This document shows positions 396 through 6,265 of a DNA stretch of 6,487 bases, one piece after another; position 1 is the first letter of the stretch; the number at the start of each line of letters is the position of its first letter. Source of the DNA: Myxococcota bacterium (GTDB lineage: Bacteria; Myxococcota; Polyangia; GCA-2747355; JAKLHH01); NCBI GenBank assembly GCA_022710245.1, contig JAKLHH010000446.1:1-6487 (forward strand), written 5' to 3'. The position numbers were made by a program, and so were the translations under genes. A model generated the notes under the pieces. It worked only from the letters and a program-made list of their open reading frames with translations, did no database searches and had not been told where the DNA came from.

Positions 396-1175
396 ATGCG
401 CTCGCCGATCAGCCCCCGCCTCGTCCTCGCCGCCGCCGCCGTCCTCTGCGCCTGGCTGCTCGCGTGCCCGCAGCTGCAGCAGGCGACCGCCGCGCCAGCC
501 GCTGTCCCGCTCCTCGCCCAGCCCGCGCCGCCGCGCCTGATCGAGGTGAGCGGCCAGGCGCGCCTCGATGTACCGCCCGACCGCGTCGACCTCGAGCTCA
601 CCCTGGAGCAGAAGCGCCCCTCGCCCCGCCTGGCGGTGGCGGAGCTCTCCCGGCGGCGCGACGCGCTCGTCTCCGCGCTGCGACGCAGCAGCGTTGGCGG
701 CGAGGACCTGGTCCTCTCCCACGTGGGCCTGCAGCAGAGCTTCGCCCCCGGTCCCATCCGCACGCCGGACGGCTACCTGGCGAGCGTCACCCTGATCGCC
801 ACGCTGCGCGACCCGGCCCGGATCGGCCTGGTGATGGAGGCCGCGGCCGCGGCCCAGGTGACCCGCATCTCCTCCACGATGCGGACCAGCAAGGGCCCCG
901 AGATGAAGAAGCGCGTGCGTGAGATGGCGCTCCACGCGGCCCGCGAGAAGGCCGCACAGATCGCGCGCAACCTCGGGGTCAAGCTCGGCCCGGTGCAGCA
1001 GGTGCGCGAGTCGCAGTGGGAGAGCTGGTACGGGGGCCGCTGGACGCTGACGAACGAGAACGCCTACGCGAGCGGCCCGCGCGGCGGCGGAGGCGGCGAG
1101 CAGCCCGAGCGCGCGCCGTCGCCCGACGCGATCCCGCTCATCCTGGGGCTCAACGTCACCTTCGCCATCCAGTGA
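396..1175 (+). CDS. Exported SIMPL-domain (DUF541, YggE-like) protein
   Basis: 259 residues, a usual length for the family. The N-terminus is an export signal: R2/R8, a hydrophobic core L9-A23, then C24 in L-L-A-C. This is a weak lipobox (Leu at -2), so the protein may be a lipoprotein or may be cleaved by signal peptidase I near A30-T-A-A. The SIMPL domain begins at I49-E-V-S-G53 and continues through V59-P-P-D-R-V-D-L-E-L. It has a middle segment with V131-T-L-I-A-T-L, then the family's characteristic helix K171-K-R-V-R-E-M-A...A-A-R-E-K-A-A-Q-I-A-R-N-L-G194 with V-K-L-G following, and closes with a strand ending at Q259. A glycine run (G230-G234) sits in a loop before the last strand. YggE in E. 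coli is an envelope protein linked to oxidative-stress tolerance; its biochemical activity is unclear, so none is assigned here. It is monocistronic and converges with the DNRLRE lipoprotein gene. Confidence 0.87.
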   Translation: MRSPISPRLVLAAAAVLCAWLLACPQLQQATAAPAAVPLLAQPAPPRLIEVSGQARLDVPPDRVDLELTLEQKRPSPRLAVAELSRRRDALVSALRRSSVGGEDLVLSHVGLQQSFAPGPIRTPDGYLASVTLIATLRDPARIGLVMEAAAAAQVTRISSTMRTSKGPEMKKRVREMALHAAREKAAQIARNLGVKLGPVQQVRESQWESWYGGRWTLTNENAYASGPRGGGGGEQPERAPSPDAIPLILGLNVTFAIQ

Positions 1176-1226: not shown

Positions 1227-2063
1227 TCAGGGAGCGCACTCGACCTCCAGCCAGGGCTGCAGGTCCGCCCCCTGCTGCTTGCCGTACGCCCAGGACTCGT
1301 GATCAGAGACCTCGGTGTCCAGGTACTCGGTCGCGCCGCGGAGCTGCAGGCTGAGCACGCCGTCGCCGCCCCGCTCGCTCTTGACCACCGCCGTCAGGTC
1401 CCAGCTCTGCACGTTCAGCGGCGGCGCGGCGAACGCCGGCACGACGAGCAGCGCGGTCGACGCGCAGGCCGGCTGGGTCAGCCAGGTGAGGCTCGCGGCG
1501 CTCCAGCTGTCGGGGCAGAGACGCACCTCCAGGTCCGGCCAGCCCCAGGTGCCAAAGAAGGCCAGCACGAGCCGCGCGCTGACCAGCTTCGCCGCGGGGC
1601 AGAGCGACTTGAGGTCGAACTTGAGCAGCGAGCGCATGCTGCGGTTGTAGCTGTAGGCGCAGTAGCCCACGCGGAGCTGCTCCAGCGCGGTGTTGTCATC
1701 TCCGTTCTCGGGAGCGGCGGCGACGTCGGCGCGCGTCTTGCCGGGGCGTCCGGAGAGGACGAAGGTGTCCTCCAGCGCCGGCAGGCTGGTCGGGCTCGCG
1801 GTCGTCGCGTCGGGCGGGCTCGCGTCGGGCGGGCTCGCCTCGCGCCCCCGCTCGGTCGCGCGCAGATCCCGGCCGTCCGCCCGCGGCCCATCGCCGAGCG
1901 GCGCGTCGCGGTGCGCGAGCTCGCCCGGGTGGCGCTCCGCCGTCGCGTCGGCGGCCGGGGGGGCGTCCGTCGCCGGCGTGCCCTGCCCGGCGGTGAAGGG
2001 GACCAGCGTGTGGCAGCCGCCGAGGAGCAGCGTGGCGCAGAGTAAAGACGACCGCAGGACCAT
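1227..2063 (-). CDS. DNRLRE-domain lipoprotein
   Basis: 278 residues from the ATG at 2063. I chose this start because it gives a textbook lipoprotein signal: R4, hydrophobic S6-L14, lipobox L14-G15-G16-C17. The open frame extends 22 codons upstream to 2129, but that stretch is Arg-rich and would bury the signal. GGAGGT lies at 2066-2071 (2-base spacing) and AGAGG at 2074-2078 (10-base spacing). C17 is followed by His, not Asp, which suits outer-membrane sorting. Residues 24-95 are a disordered Ala/Pro/Asp/Arg linker with a tandem A-S-P-P-D pair. Residues 97-277 match the DNRLRE pattern: E98-D-T-F-V, N124...L-R-V-G133, R144-S-L-L-K-F-D-L151, V161-S-A-R-L-V-L, W187-S-A-A-S-L-T-W, W221-D-L-T-A-V-V, L237-S-L-Q-L-R-G, W271-L-E-V-E. 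These domains are carbohydrate-binding-like beta sandwiches of extracellular proteins. Five Cys (135, 155, 183, 200, 276) could form disulfides. The ligand is unknown. Confidence 0.82.
   Translation of the reverse strand: MVLRSSLLCATLLLGGCHTLVPFTAGQGTPATDAPPAADATAERHPGELAHRDAPLGDGPRADGRDLRATERGREASPPDASPPDATTASPTSLPALEDTFVLSGRPGKTRADVAAAPENGDDNTALEQLRVGYCAYSYNRSMRSLLKFDLKSLCPAAKLVSARLVLAFFGTWGWPDLEVRLCPDSWSAASLTWLTQPACASTALLVVPAFAAPPLNVQSWDLTAVVKSERGGDGVLSLQLRGATEYLDTEVSDHESWAYGKQQGADLQPWLEVECAP
1805..1834. repeat. 15-base in-frame tandem repeat in the lipoprotein linker
   Basis: Two identical 15-base units (1805-1819 and 1820-1834), with four bases of a third, encode A-S-P-P-D twice in the disordered linker of the lipoprotein (residues 76-85). 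The in-frame period and exact identity point to slippage or short unequal exchange that changes linker length without breaking the gene. Confidence 0.9.
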
Positions 2064-2065
2064 GG

Positions 2066-2071
2066 ACCTCC
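2066..2071 (-). promoter_or_regulatory. Ribosome binding site for the DNRLRE lipoprotein
   Basis: GGAGGT on the minus strand lies only two bases from the ATG at 2063. AGAGG at 2074-2078 is ten bases away and may serve as well. Either one supports this start over the in-frame ATG at 2129. Confidence 0.5.
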
Positions 2072-2106
2072 ATCCTCTGCTGCGCGGCCTGGCGCTGCAA
2101 GCCCGC

Positions 2107-2130
2107 CGCGCGGCCTCGGCCGGCCGCACG
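2107..2130 (-). terminator. GC-rich hairpin downstream of radical SAM gene (second of two)
   Basis: Read on the minus strand, CGTGCGGCC pairs with GGCCGCGCG around a six-base loop. This gives nine pairs, including a G-U pair at the third position. In the opposite transcript that pair becomes A-C and breaks, so the structure favours minus-strand RNA. It sits directly after the hairpin at 2131-2152. No U-tract follows, so it may be a U-less terminator, a 3'-end stabiliser or an attenuator before the lipoprotein gene. Confidence 0.4.
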
Positions 2131-2152
2131 CGCGCCGGTCACCGCCGGCACG
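2131..2152 (-). terminator. GC-rich hairpin downstream of radical SAM gene (first of two)
   Basis: On the minus strand CGTGCCGG pairs with CCGGCGCG around the loop CGGTGA. This gives eight pairs, again with a G-U at the third position that would be a mismatch in antisense RNA. It is contiguous with the next hairpin (2107-2130), and its arms begin and end with the same CGTGC...GCGCG frame. It overlaps the end of the downstream copy of the duplicated gene end, so part of it is duplicated sequence. Confidence 0.4.
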
Positions 2153-2250
2153 AGCACGCCCTCGGCGCCTCCGGCTACTGCTCCTCGCCGGTCACGGCCG
2201 GCACGAGCACGCCCCCTCGGCGCCTCCGGCTACTGCTCCTCGCCGGTCAC
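2144..2250. repeat. Near-perfect tandem duplication of the radical SAM gene's 3' end
   Basis: Bases 2144-2195 and 2197-2250 are identical apart from two extra C bases at 2214-2215 in the second copy. The gene-proximal copy (2197-2250) contains the last six codons and TAG stop of the radical SAM gene (2230-2250) plus 33 bases of 3' flank. The other copy lies entirely downstream of the stop. The shared ten-mer CGCCGGTCAC recurs at 2133, 2186 and 2241, giving periods of 53 and 55 bases. The periods are not multiples of three, so the downstream copy is not an in-frame extension. Confidence 0.93.
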
Positions 2251-4458
2251 CTTCTTCTTCGGGACCAGCGGCAGCGGCGCCATCTCGGTCATGTGCGTGC
2301 GGTCCTTCTTCGGCTCGGCCTTCTTCGGGGGCGCCTTCTTCGGCGGCGGCTTCGTCGGCGGCTGCGGCCGCGGCGCCATCTCCTTCATGTGCGTCCTGCC
2401 CGCGTCCCGGGGGATCGGCGCCATCTCCGCCATCTGCGTCTCGCCGGCGTCCCGGTACGGCCGCGGCGCCATCTCGCTCATGTGCGTCCGCTCGAGCGGG
2501 AGCCCGGCGGCCTTCGCGCGCGCGAGCTCCTCGGCGCTGAAGCGGAGGACGAAGCGCCGGTTGCCCACGTCGGCGCCCTGCACCTGCAGGCGCACCCCGC
2601 GCGGGCAGGCCTGCGCCTCGCCGCTCCCGGCCTTGAAGGTGCAGGTCCGGAGCTGACCGTCGTGGCCGAGGACCACGGTCACCTCGACGGCGACCGCGCG
2701 GCTCACGAGCTGCGCGATCCAGGGCAGCACGGCGCGGGTCACCGGCTCGCGCACCTTCGCCGGGTCTCCCTCGAGGGGCGCCGCGATGGTCTCGTAGACG
2801 TGGGTGCCGATGCCGGGCTCCTGCTTGCACGCGGCGCCGGCGACGGAGATCGTCGCGGCCAGCCCCGCCGCCGCCACCCGCCTCGCCGCCCCGCGCAGCC
2901 TCCCGCCGCGCGCGTCCTGCCGCGCGGCCGCGTGGATCGCGTCGAGGAGCGCCATCCCCTCGGCGCCGAGGCGCTCGTTCTCCCCGGCGACCCAGGCGGT
3001 GAGCTCCCGCGCGAAGGCGCTCTCCAGACCGGGGAGCCTGCCGCGAGCGCGAGCCAGCCGCGCGACCAGCGCCTCGAGCCCGCAGCAGGTGCTCGCGTTC
3101 ACCCGCCGCACGAAGTCCTTGGCGGCGGGCCTGAGCGCGGCCGTCCAGCCGAAGTGCTCGAGGAGCTGCGCCTCGAAGTCGACCCGCATGGCCAGGTGGT
3201 GGAGCGCGCTCGCCCCGTGCCCGTAGTTGCGCTCGTAGAAGGCCCCGAGCGCGAGCTCGAAGGCGCGCTGCGCCCGCGGGTCCGCGATCACGTAGTGCCG
3301 CCCCCAGAAGTCGCCGAGGAGCCGCCCCTCGCGCGCGAGCCGCCGCTCGAGCGGCGTCCCCGCGTAGACCTCGGTGCGGCAGAAGTTCATCGGGTTCTCG
3401 CCGTGGCGGCGGAGGAAGCGGAGGTTCTCGGCGACGTCCTCGAGGGTCGAGTCGGGGTTGAAGAGGAGCAGGTTGAAGCAGGCGTGCAGGCCCGCCTCGT
3501 TCACCAGGCGGAGCGCGCGCTCGTTCTCGGCCAGGGTCTGGCCGCGGCCGAGGGCGCGGAGCGACGCCTCGCTCCCCGCCTCGATGCCGAGGAAGAGGCG
3601 GAAGGTGCCGAGGCGCTGGAGTGCGGCCAGCACCTCGGGCTCCACCGCGTCGGGGCGGCACTTGAGCGCGAGCGCGACGCGGCCGAGCTTGCGGGGGCGC
3701 AGCGCGCGCTCGAGGGCAGCGAGCCGCGCGAGCGCCGCCTCGCGGCCGCGGGGCAGGAAGTTGTCGTCGTGGAAGTTGAAGATGCGCACCCCCTGCCGGC
3801 GGAGCGCGGCCAGCTCCGCGGCCACCGCGTCGGCGTCGCGCAGGCGATGGCGCTCGCCGCCGCAGAGGCGATGCCAGGCGGAGATCGAGCAGAAGGCGCA
3901 GCCGTAGGTGCAGCCGCGCGAGGCGAGCAGGTTGACGATGGGCAGGCCGAGGAACTCGTCGGGCGGCTGCTTGCGGGTCGGCCAGGCGAGCGCGTCGAGG
4001 TCCGGCGCCATGCGCGGCGCGCCGGTGCGGCGGACCCGGCCGCCCGCGCCCTGGAGCACGAGCCCGCCGACCTCCGCGGGCGCCCTCCCGGCGGCGAGCT
4101 CGGTGAGCGGCCCCTCCCCCTCGCCGAGGACCACCGCGTCGAGCGCCGCCACCTCGCCGAGGAGCGCCTCCGCGTTGAAGCCGGCGAAGTGCCCGCCCGC
4201 GACGAGGAGCCCGCTCACCCCGAGCTCGCGCAGGCGCGTGGCCAGCGCGGCGAACTCGCGCGCCCGCGCGGTGAAGACCATCGACAGGCCGATCAGCGCG
4301 AAGCCCCCGGCGGCCGCGAGGCGCGCCACGTCCTCGAGCTGCTCGGGCTCGTTGAAGACGAGCTGGGTGACCTCGTGCCCGTCCCGCTCCAGCGCGCCCC
4401 GCAGGTAGCGGACCGCCAGGCTCTCCTCTTGCTCCGCGCCGATCAGCGCCACGCGCAT
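2230..4458 (-). CDS. B12-binding radical SAM protein with repeat-bearing C-terminal extension
   Basis: 742 residues from the ATG at 4458, with GGAG at 4465-4468 six bases upstream. Residues 1-125 are a cobalamin-binding Rossmann domain of the BchE-like radical SAM type: V3-A-L-I-G, L55-I-G-L-S, V86-A-G-G-H, V110-L-G-E-G-E-G-P-L-T-E-L. Residues 172-400 are a radical SAM domain with the [4Fe-4S] motif C183-T-Y-G-C187-A-F-C190, then F227-N-F-H-D-D-N-F, L265-K-C-R-P-D and G291-I-E-A-G-S. Residues 400-515 resemble the helical tail of such enzymes, with a vicinal C458-C459. The usual enzyme would end near here. Instead the frame continues with R526-R, a hydrophobic run to C544 like a lipoprotein signal, an unrecognised domain (about 550-655, C606 and C618), four T-[H/Q]-M-x-E-M-A-P-x-P repeats starting at 658, 674, 689 and 721, and a Pro/Lys linker (699-719). 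Relatives use SAM and B12 for radical methylation or ring chemistry; the substrate here is unknown. Confidence 0.85.
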   Translation of the reverse strand: MRVALIGAEQEESLAVRYLRGALERDGHEVTQLVFNEPEQLEDVARLAAAGGFALIGLSMVFTARAREFAALATRLRELGVSGLLVAGGHFAGFNAEALLGEVAALDAVVLGEGEGPLTELAAGRAPAEVGGLVLQGAGGRVRRTGAPRMAPDLDALAWPTRKQPPDEFLGLPIVNLLASRGCTYGCAFCSISAWHRLCGGERHRLRDADAVAAELAALRRQGVRIFNFHDDNFLPRGREAALARLAALERALRPRKLGRVALALKCRPDAVEPEVLAALQRLGTFRLFLGIEAGSEASLRALGRGQTLAENERALRLVNEAGLHACFNLLLFNPDSTLEDVAENLRFLRRHGENPMNFCRTEVYAGTPLERRLAREGRLLGDFWGRHYVIADPRAQRAFELALGAFYERNYGHGASALHHLAMRVDFEAQLLEHFGWTAALRPAAKDFVRRVNASTCCGLEALVARLARARGRLPGLESAFARELTAWVAGENERLGAEGMALLDAIHAAARQDARGGRLRGAARRVAAAGLAATISVAGAACKQEPGIGTHVYETIAAPLEGDPAKVREPVTRAVLPWIAQLVSRAVAVEVTVVLGHDGQLRTCTFKAGSGEAQACPRGVRLQVQGADVGNRRFVLRFSAEELARAKAAGLPLERTHMSEMAPRPYRDAGETQMAEMAPIPRDAGRTHMKEMAPRPQPPTKPPPKKAPPKKAEPKKDRTHMTEMAPLPLVPKKKVTGEEQ
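2269..2487 (-). repeat. Four-copy Met/His peptide repeat in the radical SAM C-terminus
   Basis: Copies lie at 2458-2487, 2410-2439, 2365-2394 and 2269-2298. Each encodes T-[H/Q]-M-x-E-M-A-P-x-P. In DNA the first eight codons are the same in all four (ACG CAC ATG nnn GAG ATG GCG CC), except CAG for CAC in copy 2 and the variable codon, which encodes Ser, Ala, Lys and Thr in turn. Copies 1-3 are spaced 48 and 45 bases apart. Copy 4 follows the Pro/Lys-rich linker, 96 bases from copy 3. The spacing keeps frame throughout. Confidence 0.93.
2776..2805 (-). repeat. Degenerate upstream copy of the C-terminal peptide motif
   Basis: Residues 552-561 of the radical SAM protein read T-H-V-Y-E-T-I-A-A-P, just after the hydrophobic stretch ending at C544. 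This matches the later repeats at T, H, E, A and P with one extra residue, and may be an ancestral or diverged copy. The similarity is short and could be chance. Confidence 0.35.
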
Positions 4459-4558: not shown

Positions 4559-5263
4559 ATGACTCGCCCGACCTCCCTGAGCGTGCCTTCTGTGCTTCGC
4601 GTGCTGCTCGCGCTCCTCGCGCTCGGCTCCCTCGCGCTCGCCGCGCCGCTCCCCGCCGACGTGGCGGCCGACCCCGTCCTCGCGCGCCTGCCGCTCCCCG
4701 CCGGGTGGCGCGTCCTCCGCCAGGGTGACCAGCTCGTCTTCGAGCGGACCACGCCGGTCTGGGTCCTCCCCGAGAACCGGATCAGCGCCCCGGTCTCGAC
4801 GGAGACGGCCGCCGAGCGCTCCGCCCGCATCCGCAAGCACGGCAAGCTGGTGCGCCCGCGCTTCGCCTTCCGCCTGGAGCCGCGCTGGAGCGCCGCGCGC
4901 CTGGCGCGGGTCACCCGCGAGAACGCCGCGGTCTCCCGCTCGCTCGCGGCGCTCGGCCGCAAGCACGGCATCACGCCGCTCCTCGACCAGGTCGCCCACA
5001 GCAAGAACCCCGACCCGCTCCGCCTCGCCCGCACCCCCGACGAGGAGCGCCGGGTCCGCGCCTACCTCGCCGAGCGCCGCGCCCTCGAGGCGAAGCTGCA
5101 GCCGCTCCCCGAGCTCGCGAGCGCGCGCTTCAGCCTCTTCCCGGCGGGGCACGAGGGCTGGAGCGACGCCACCCACCTGGTCGACCCGCCCGCGGCGGCC
5201 GAGGAGTGCTACCGAGTCGAGCAGGCCCTCCGCGACGCGATCGGGGCCGCGGCCCGTCCGTGA
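4559..5263 (+). CDS. Secreted protein of unknown function
   Basis: 234 residues from the ATG at 4559. The open frame extends upstream to 4457, but that part overlaps the divergent promoters. This internal start puts a signal peptide at the N-terminus: R3, R14, hydrophobic core V12-L27, and a likely cut after A28 (A26-L-A). The mature part starts P30-L-P-A-D-V-A-A-D-P-V. It is Arg-rich, with a predicted beta-type segment (G49-W-R-V-L-R...L-V-F-E-R), then mostly helical, charged stretches at 83-130 and 160-185. It holds one Cys (C217) and no transmembrane segment after the signal. I recognise no family or catalytic motif. It is probably periplasmic or secreted. Codon bias matches the neighbours. 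No ribosome binding site is visible, but a promoter is placed to start the RNA at the ATG. It is divergent from the radical SAM gene, which may be chance or may mean shared control. Confidence 0.75.
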   Translation: MTRPTSLSVPSVLRVLLALLALGSLALAAPLPADVAADPVLARLPLPAGWRVLRQGDQLVFERTTPVWVLPENRISAPVSTETAAERSARIRKHGKLVRPRFAFRLEPRWSAARLARVTRENAAVSRSLAALGRKHGITPLLDQVAHSKNPDPLRLARTPDEERRVRAYLAERRALEAKLQPLPELASARFSLFPAGHEGWSDATHLVDPPAAAEECYRVEQALRDAIGAAARP

Positions 5264-5389: not shown

Positions 5390-6265
5390 GTGCAGGTCCG
5401 CTACAAGCAGGTCGATGTCTTCTCGCGCCGCCCGCTCTCGGGCAACCCGGTCGCGGTCTTCCTCGAGGCGGCGCCGCTCACGCCGGAGGTCATGCAGCAG
5501 ATCGCGAGCTGGATGAACCTCTCGGAGTGCACCTTCGTCACCCCAGCCGCTGATCCGCGCGCGGACTACCGCGTCCGCATCTTCGATCCGCGGCACGAGA
5601 TGCCCTTCGCGGGCCACCCGACCGTCGGGACCGCCCACGCGCTGCTCGAGGCGGGGCTGCTCCCCCGGCAGCCCGGCCTCCTCGTGCAGGAATGCGGGGT
5701 CGGCCTCGTCCGGCTGCACCTCGAGGCCGACGGGGTGGTCTTCTTCGAGCTGCCCGCGCCGGTGTTCGAGCCGGTCCCCGACGGCGGGCACGCGGCGGTC
5801 GCCGCGGCGCTGGGGCTCGAGGCGGCGCGGCTCTCGCCGCTGCAGTCCATCTCGGTGGGCCCGCGCTGGCTCACCACCGAGCTCGACTCCGTCACCACGG
5901 TCCTCGCGCTGACCCCGGACCAGCACGCGCTGACGACCGTCAGCCGCGCGCTCGGGGCGGAGGGCGTGACGGTCTTCGCGGCCTACGCCTCCGGGGGCGC
6001 CGCCCTCGACGCCGCCATCGAGGTCCGCTCCTTCGCGCCGGCCACGGGCGTGCCGGAGGATCCGGTCTGCGGCAGCGGGAACGGCTGCGTCGCGGCGCTC
6101 CTCCGCCAGCGCGGGCTGCCGCTCGGGCTCGCGTACACCGCCTCGCAGGGCAAGGCGCTCGGGCGCTCGGGGCGGGTCCAGATCCGTTACGAGGGCGAGA
6201 CCATCCTCGTCGGCGGTGCGGCCAACACCTGCCTCGACGGAGAGCTCCGCATCGCCGCCCTCTGA
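5390..6265 (+). CDS. PhzF-family isomerase/epimerase
   Basis: 291 residues with a GTG start, close to usual PhzF length. The two-lobed diaminopimelate-epimerase-like fold is recognisable from its motifs: Q7-V-D-V-F...G18-N-P-V-A-V-F at the start, N43-L-S-E46-C-T-F-V with the catalytic glutamate, F66-D-P, G75-H76-P-T-V-G-T-A in the first lobe, and E223-D224-P-V-C-G-S229-G-N-G in the second. E46, H76, D224 and S229 correspond to E45, H74, D208 and S213 of Pseudomonas PhzF. The tail has Q253-G-K-A-L-G-R and G275-G. PhzF itself isomerises trans-2,3-dihydro-3-hydroxyanthranilate in phenazine synthesis, but most family members have other or unknown substrates. No phenazine genes are adjacent, so a phenazine role is not supported. 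All key residues are intact, so it is probably an active cytoplasmic enzyme. Confidence 0.92.
   Translation: MQVRYKQVDVFSRRPLSGNPVAVFLEAAPLTPEVMQQIASWMNLSECTFVTPAADPRADYRVRIFDPRHEMPFAGHPTVGTAHALLEAGLLPRQPGLLVQECGVGLVRLHLEADGVVFFELPAPVFEPVPDGGHAAVAAALGLEAARLSPLQSISVGPRWLTTELDSVTTVLALTPDQHALTTVSRALGAEGVTVFAAYASGGAALDAAIEVRSFAPATGVPEDPVCGSGNGCVAALLRQRGLPLGLAYTASQGKALGRSGRVQIRYEGETILVGGAANTCLDGELRIAAL

What the first reader, a model, noticed from the sequence alone, without database searches (positions are those of the whole stretch)
2269..2487. Radical SAM enzyme ending in a substrate-like repeated peptide
Seen: four copies of T-[H/Q]-M-x-E-M-A-P-x-P at the C-terminus of a cobalamin-binding radical SAM protein, with an intact C183/C187/C190 cluster motif. 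The repeats are set in Pro/Lys-rich spacers. Known: B12-dependent radical SAM enzymes modify peptides in several RiPP pathways, and precursors with repeated cores exist. Inference: the tail could be a covalently attached, multi-core substrate for the enzyme domain, which would be an unusual self-contained arrangement. I know of no described family with this motif.
Basis: partly seen in the sequence, partly recalled or inferred. Interest (0 to 1): 0.75.

Follow-up and report, generated by a model that had tools for sequence, protein, structure and literature searches.

The report
Radical enzyme fused to its peptide
A bacterial vitamin-B12 radical enzyme carries at its own end a repeated peptide that looks like its substrate; relatives without the tail mostly have the same kind of peptide as a separate gene beside them, which points to an undescribed family of enzymes that probably modify a peptide attached to themselves.

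Summary
In detail: four exact copies of T[HQ]M.EMAP.P end a 742-residue B12-binding radical SAM protein with an intact CxxxCxxC at 183-190. A fifth, diverged copy (THVYETIAAP) was missed. This is a family trait: relatives from Myxococcota, Planctomycetota and Verrucomicrobiota share core, Ala-rich hydrophobic segment (usually ending in Cys) and 0-7 motif copies. The decisive find: paralogues lacking the tail sit beside small separate genes with the same layout (signal-like start, Cys, copies of VVCDPMPxP, VVDCVPPP or similar), clearly in 10 of 15 tail-less members and weakly in one more. Fused and split forms interleave on the enzyme tree, and the motif is nearly private to this system (3 of 3 VVCDPMP matches in 377 genomes lie in these partners). 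Fixed motif positions evolve as slowly as the enzyme core. Best reading: a precursor peptide fused to its modifying enzyme, as in fungal borosins but with a cobalamin radical SAM enzyme and an internal signal-like leader. That the repeats are modified, and how, is inferred. No protein-family model fits enzyme or peptide above its cut-off, and nine literature searches found no description.

The parts
2230..4458 (-). CDS, 742 aa: B12-binding radical SAM enzyme with C-terminal repeat tail
   Evidence: ORF; Pfam; same architecture in homologues
4096..4425 (-). B12-binding domain, residues 12-121
   Evidence: PF02310, E 1.3e-15
3412..3921 (-). radical SAM domain, residues 180-349
   Evidence: PF04055, E 2.5e-19
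3889..3912 (-). CTYGCAFC, [4Fe-4S] cluster motif C183/C187/C190
   Evidence: the three Cys are invariant columns in a 52-row alignment
2827..2877 (-). signal-like hydrophobic segment VAAAGLAATISVAGAAC, residues 528-544
   Evidence: similar place in most homologues; lipoprotein-like nature is inference, no signal predictor was run
2776..2805 (-). diverged first repeat THVYETIAAP, residues 552-561
   Evidence: many homologues carry TH..ET or TH..EM at this place
2500..2781 (-). folded tail domain, about residues 560-653
   Evidence: pLDDT about 90 in the full model, 90.8 alone; weak TolA-III/TonB-CTD likeness
2458..2487 (-). repeat THMSEMAPRP, residues 658-667
2410..2439 (-). repeat TQMAEMAPIP, residues 674-683
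2365..2394 (-). repeat THMKEMAPRP, residues 689-698
2299..2364 (-). Pro/Lys-rich spacer QPPTKPPPKKAPPKKAEPKKDR
   Evidence: sequence; pLDDT below 50
2269..2298 (-). repeat THMTEMAPLP, residues 721-730

Best explanation
The protein is a cobalamin-dependent radical SAM enzyme fused to its own precursor peptide. The tail after about residue 525 is a complete precursor module: a basic plus Ala-rich hydrophobic leader that resembles a lipoprotein signal and ends in Cys, then repeated core peptides (TH.xEMAP.P) on flexible Pro-rich linkers, with a small folded domain in between. The enzyme domain most likely modifies the repeats, in cis or within a dimer, probably at or near the acidic-Met/Pro core (a methyl transfer would be the default for this enzyme class; this is inference). 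In related paralogues the same kind of module is a separate small gene directly beside the enzyme. Shown: architecture, family-wide conservation, split and fused forms, near-privacy of the motif, slow evolution of the motif. Inferred: that the repeats are modified, the chemistry, and that the signal-like segment lets the modified tail be exported or anchored.
For: (1) Rosetta-stone: of 15 tail-less complete members, by reading, 10 have a clear partner with signal-like start, Cys and motif within 600 nt on the same strand (L101, L102, L103, L104, L105, L106, L107, L110, L138, L141), one is weak (L109), four none or undecidable (L023 and L033 broken frames, L149 contig end, L108 none). Script-only count 11 of 15 against 7 of 66 tailed members, Fisher P 2.4e-6; 1.9e-5 if the false call L023 is dropped. 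A 4-nt overlap with the enzyme stop in L106, L107, L110, L141. (2) The partner family is precursor-like: 49 proteins (42 at E<=1e-3), 59-192 aa, most with an N-terminal part like VRxRVxRHLxxLLIPGVxGLGAC, and VVCDPMPxP or close variants in 1-5 copies by regex. (3) Reciprocal: the four well-scoring peptide hits among 289 genomes all lie beside a family enzyme; two (G006, G008) are the profile's own sources, G015 was known from the enzyme side, G360 is new. (4) Near-privacy: 12 of 15 THxxEM[AV][AP] DNA matches in 19 genomes lie in these tails, the other 3 are unrelated; VVCDPMP matches 3 times in 377 genomes, always in partners. (5) Fused and split states interleave on the enzyme tree, at least 3 changes of the fused label forced by well-supported branches. 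(6) Fixed motif positions substitute at 0.191, core 0.184, rest of tail 0.415 over 105 close pairs. (7) Paralogues in one genome carry different motif words (G011, G015: 8 members each). (8) Core fold matches OxsB, TsrM and the protein-modifying MgmA.
Against: No product, mass or assay evidence. No conserved protease, transporter or other tailoring gene was seen in the flanks, so release of a peptide is unsupported. The E-type (TH.xEM) motif was never found as a stand-alone peptide: the tail search found only a fragment of another fused protein, and 0 of 377 genomes matched THM.EMAP; the link from E-type tails to D-type partners rests on layout, position and enzyme kinship, not on sequence homology of the peptides. 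The pattern controls read backwards were not empty: 2 matches in 377 genomes for VVCDPMP and 1 in 19 for THxxEM. The Cys before the core is conserved in VVCDPMP but absent from the window repeats. 15 of 121 proteins had no copy by the regex. Four of 15 tail-less members lack an identified partner.
Confidence: 0.66

Rival explanations
1. The tail is an envelope partner module, not a substrate: a signal-like segment anchors the enzyme or exports a lipoprotein-like tail, and the repeats are docking or ligand-binding motifs; the enzyme acts on something else.
For: Hydrophobic segment at a near-fixed place; stand-alone partners have lipoprotein-like starts; tail domain weakly TolA/TonB-CTD-like; Pro/Lys-rich linkers as in TonB-like proteins (recalled).
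Against: Many tails and partners lack the folded domain but keep the repeats; paralogues of one genome have different motif words, odd for a shared dock; no other place in 377 genomes carries VVCDPMP.
Confidence: 0.2
2. The repeats bind a metal (Met, His, Cys, Glu rich) and serve metal handling or cluster/cobalamin supply for the enzyme, unmodified.
For: E-type words are rich in His, Met, Glu and often Cys (THMCEMAP).
Against: D-type words such as VVDPxPPD and PPPDPLPPP in the same family have no His, Met or Cys.
Confidence: 0.08
3. The tail is neutral low-complexity expansion in a high-GC genome.
For: GC-rich repeats; spacers evolve fast.
Against: Motif kept across phyla at about enzyme-core rates; same layout encoded separately beside tail-less enzymes; shuffles give none.
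Confidence: 0.02
4. Two products from one gene: an internal start or signal-peptidase-like cleavage releases the tail as a free lipoprotein, so the fusion is only formal. Compatible with the best explanation.
For: Signal-like segment with Cys inside the chain; Shine-Dalgarno-like plus start codon upstream of it in 20 of 65 members against 37 of 260 control windows.
Against: No excess of ATG there (26 of 65 against 117 of 260) and no SD-preceded start in the window protein.
Confidence: 0.25

Closest known systems
Borosins (omphalotin-type, fused precursor plus N-methyltransferase)
   Same: Precursor fused to its modifying enzyme in types I-III; a separate precursor in bacterial type IV (PMC11285071, passages read)
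   Different: Borosins use a SAM-dependent backbone N-methyltransferase; here the enzyme is a B12 radical SAM protein, with a signal-like leader and several short cores
Cobalamin-dependent radical SAM enzymes acting on peptides or proteins (PoyB/PoyC; MgmA, PDB 9ccb)
   Same: B12-binding plus radical SAM core, CxxxCxxC; MgmA is the best PDB sequence match and OxsB, TsrM, MgmA are top fold matches
   Different: Their substrates are separate molecules (recalled). All NCBIfam equivalogs score far below cut-off
MNIO-modified RiPPs with Sec or lipoprotein signal peptides (bufferins)
   Same: Precursor carries a signal peptide instead of a classical leader (PMC12452194, abstract and passages read)
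   Different: Different enzyme family, separate genes with partner proteins, Cys-motif cores
rSAM/lipoprotein pairs of Bacteroidetes (TIGR04133/TIGR04134, recalled)
   Same: Radical SAM gene beside a lipoprotein-like putative substrate
   Different: Recalled to be SPASM-type without B12; neither model appears among the shown hits of our enzyme, and our peptides matched no NCBIfam model

Membership tests
Cobalamin-dependent (class B) radical SAM enzymes | N-terminal B12-binding domain and radical SAM domain with CxxxCxxC | tested here: met
   PF02310 and PF04055 above cut-off; C183/C187/C190
Cobalamin-dependent (class B) radical SAM enzymes | Fold of solved members | tested here: met
   Foldseek: OxsB E 1.7e-20, TsrM 6.4e-19, MgmA 9.6e-18
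Cobalamin-dependent (class B) radical SAM enzymes | Cobalamin binding and SAM-derived radical chemistry | not testable with these tools
   needs purified protein
RiPP systems | Encoded precursor-like peptide next to or fused with the candidate modifying enzyme | tested here: met
   partners beside 10 of 15 tail-less enzymes and G360; fused in others
RiPP systems | Leader plus core organisation | tested here: inconclusive
   N-terminal part alike in most of 50 stand-alone peptides, with 1-5 repeated cores by regex; leader role not shown
RiPP systems | Post-translational modification of the core | not testable with these tools
   needs mass spectrometry
RiPP systems | Dedicated protease or exporter nearby | tested here: inconclusive
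   no conserved neighbour of 110 aa or more among 64 sources with limited flanks; not every RiPP cluster has one (recalled)
Borosins | alpha-N-methyltransferase domain | tested here: not met
   only B12-binding and Radical_SAM found
Borosins | Core fused at the enzyme's C-terminus | tested here: met
   architecture
HpnR, HpnJ, ApyD, MgmA and other NCBIfam B12-rSAM equivalogs | Score above the curated cut-off | tested here: not met
   best HpnR 75.4 bits against 650; ApyD 65.5 against 750; MCR glutamine methylase 53.8 against 360
TIGR04133/TIGR04134 rSAM/lipoprotein pairs | Match to the NCBIfam models | tested here: not met
   not among the 25 of 30 hits shown for the enzyme, the last of which has E 0.034; no hit for four partners and the window tail at E<=10

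The most novel reading that the evidence does not exclude
An undescribed, widespread class of single-gene peptide-modification systems: cobalamin radical SAM enzymes that carry their own multi-core precursor behind an internal signal-like leader, modify the cores in cis, and then send or anchor the modified tail in the envelope. Paralogues in one genome each carry their own core word, and the module has moved between fused and split forms several times.
Probability: 0.45. Interest if true: 0.86.

Novelty: new variant of a known kind. Interest (0 to 1): 0.74.

Why it matters
Enzyme-precursor fusions pair enzyme and substrate with certainty, which is a main obstacle in assigning radical SAM chemistry. 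If the reading holds, more than a hundred sequence variants (106 of 121 proteins with at least one copy) already come with their substrate attached, in phyla whose peptide products are poorly known, and one purified protein plus mass spectrometry would reveal the modification. The internal signal-like leader also raises the question how modification is timed before membrane insertion or export.

Full report
What is there. The window (6487 bases, GC-rich) encodes on the minus strand a 742-residue protein, 4458..2230, with Pfam B12-binding (residues 12-121) and Radical_SAM (180-349) domains. The cluster motif is CTYGCAFC at 183-190, and four strict copies of T[HQ]M.EMAP.P lie at residues 658, 674, 689 and 721; none of 20,000 shuffles of the tail gave one. 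A fifth, diverged copy THVYETIAAP follows shortly after an Ala-rich hydrophobic segment that ends in Cys544. AlphaFold gives a confident core, a long helix 476-541, disorder at 541-559, a confident small domain at about 560-653 and a disordered repeat region 654-742.

A family trait. The homologue search returned 242 proteins at E<=1e-3, of which the best 120 were listed and their tails read. The hydrophobic segment begins at about residue 514-571 in most of them; the script picked another stretch in six rows (P0008, P0074, P0079, P0081, P0087, P0095) and one protein (P0110) was too short. By regex, 106 of 121 proteins (the 120 listed, the window's own among them, plus one found) have at least one motif copy in the tail, range 0-7; with a similar regex only 2 of 120 have a match before the tail. 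Several proteins without a match have reduced forms (RPEMAPRPP in P0052, P0059, P0090) or are cut short (P0110). The 33 genome-contig loci come from MAGs and genomes labelled Myxococcales, Deltaproteobacteria, Planctomycetota, Verrucomicrobia and others. Over 105 close pairs, fixed motif positions changed at 0.191 per site, the enzyme core at 0.184, variable motif positions at 0.409 and other tail sites at 0.415; pairs share proteins and motif sites were chosen because one of the two sequences matched, so the contrast is indicative.

Paralogues and other words. Nineteen genomes reached through the loci have (by construction at least one) 1-8 matches at E<=1e-40. More distant paralogues (about 38-50% identity) mostly keep the core, the hydrophobic segment with Cys, and a repeat-bearing tail, but with other words: PPPDPLPPP, VVDPxPPDAG, DMVPPTGGR, GVAEAAPPPY, HMCEMMMEP, CDMAAPPPD. 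An acidic residue followed by Met, Pro, Cys or Ala and then small residues and Pro is common to most. Members of one genome carry different words (for example G011 and G015, 8 each).

Split systems. Of 94 distinct frames, fifteen complete members end within 75 residues after the core. By script, 11 of 15 have within 1500 nt on the same strand an ORF with a signal-like start ending in Cys and a motif; 7 of 66 tailed members with enough flank do (P 2.4e-6). Reading them one by one: L101, L102, L103, L104, L105, L106, L107, L110, L141 and (missed by the script) L138 are clear, ten in all; L109 is weak; the call for L023 is false; L033 and L023 have broken frames, L149 lies at a contig end and L108 has none. 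Four partners overlap the enzyme stop codon by 4 nt. In L103 the partner lies 562 nt upstream. A profile of the L101 and L102 peptides finds 49 proteins (42 at E<=1e-3): most have VRxRVxRHLxxLLIPGVxGLGAC or a similar start, followed by 1-5 copies (by regex) of VVCDPMPxP or close variants. Searching genomes with that profile, the four well-scoring hits among 289 genomes all lie beside a family enzyme: G006 and G008 are the profile's own sources, G015 was known from the enzyme side, G360 is new. Six further hits at E 1e-4 to 8e-4 show neither motif nor enzyme. The DNA pattern for VVCDPMP matches three times in 377 genomes, always in these partners (G008 twice, G122 once); the same pattern read backwards matched twice. 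THM.EMAP matches in none of the 377. In the 19 family genomes 12 of 15 THxxEM[AV][AP] matches are in the tails, and the other three lie in what read as chorismate synthase, a phosphofructokinase-like gene and a frame without an evident gene (names by eye); the backward control matched once.

History. A tree of 71 enzyme cores (57 fused, 10 split, 4 without tail or partner as labelled then) needs 5 changes of the fused label, at least 3 forced by well-supported branches; no shuffle of 500 was as low. With L138 relabelled as split, the two states need 4 changes. The window protein lies in a supported clade of 23 fused rows; motif words with Glu are, apart from L061 and three rows that I count as mis-scored, confined to the larger 32-row clade around it, with 7 of 71 rows untyped.

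Mechanism. Enzyme plus repeat peptide, adjacent and often overlapping or fused, a nearly private motif, slow motif evolution and clade-specific words are what an enzyme and its dedicated peptide substrate would show. The fold neighbours OxsB, TsrM, MgmA, CysS and TokK make C-methylation or another radical reaction likely, but nothing here shows which. The hydrophobic segment resembles a lipoprotein signal in both forms; that it works as leader, anchor or export signal is inference. No dedicated protease or exporter is conserved in the flanks examined, so the product may stay a modified protein rather than become a small peptide.

Comparison. Borosins are the precedent for a precursor fused to its modifying enzyme, with separate precursors in bacterial type IV (PMC11285071, passages); bufferins are the precedent for precursors with signal peptides (PMC12452194, abstract and passages). 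A 2025 review of cobalamin radical SAM enzymes (PMC13331322, passages) mentions no such fusion in the passages I saw. NCBIfam has no match for the peptides and Pfam only sub-threshold ones, and no NCBIfam equivalog reaches its cut-off for the enzyme among the 25 of 30 hits shown.

Verdict. Observation confirmed; interpretation partly supported: a fused precursor is the best reading (0.66), with an envelope docking or anchoring module as main rival (0.20).

Noticed in passing
window 2133-2251: A 55-bp tandem duplication (2.2 copies, 93% match) covers the last codons and stop region of the enzyme gene and its 3' flank.
   Followed up: no
window 1227-2129 (-): Directly downstream on the same strand lies a lipoprotein-like gene with a DNRLRE/CBM96 domain; its sequence shows no TH.xEMAP copy.
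   Followed up: partly
window 4559-5263 (+): Divergently oriented secreted-looking protein of 234 aa with no Pfam or NCBIfam match at E<=0.1.
   Followed up: no
window 396-1175, 5390-6265, 3-155: SIMPL (DUF541) protein, PhzF-family isomerase, and the start of a protein that reads like a Ser/Thr kinase (by eye).
   Followed up: no
L031 (Geomonas) and L033 (Syntrophobacteraceae): These relatives have a different, non-repetitive shared C-terminus (..WVDGGYNFGLSPSAIPYHEFKRQLA in L031); in L033 it lies in another frame. No convincing partner peptide was seen.
   Followed up: no
L069, L070, L071, L073, L074, L076: Very long tails (about 420-530 residues after the core) with domain-like stretches around a CDMAAPPPD, CDPMAIPPD or CDCAPI word, in two genomes with 8 paralogues each.
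   Followed up: no
L132 (G078): Tail domain resembles the AgmX/TonB C-terminal type by eye; TonB_C matched 1 of 16 tail-domain members at E 0.0015 (which member was not shown).
   Followed up: partly
P0061, P0097; partners L103, L110, L138: Another domain type follows the motif in some fused tails and in some stand-alone partners, so the accessory domain looks exchangeable (by eye).
   Followed up: no
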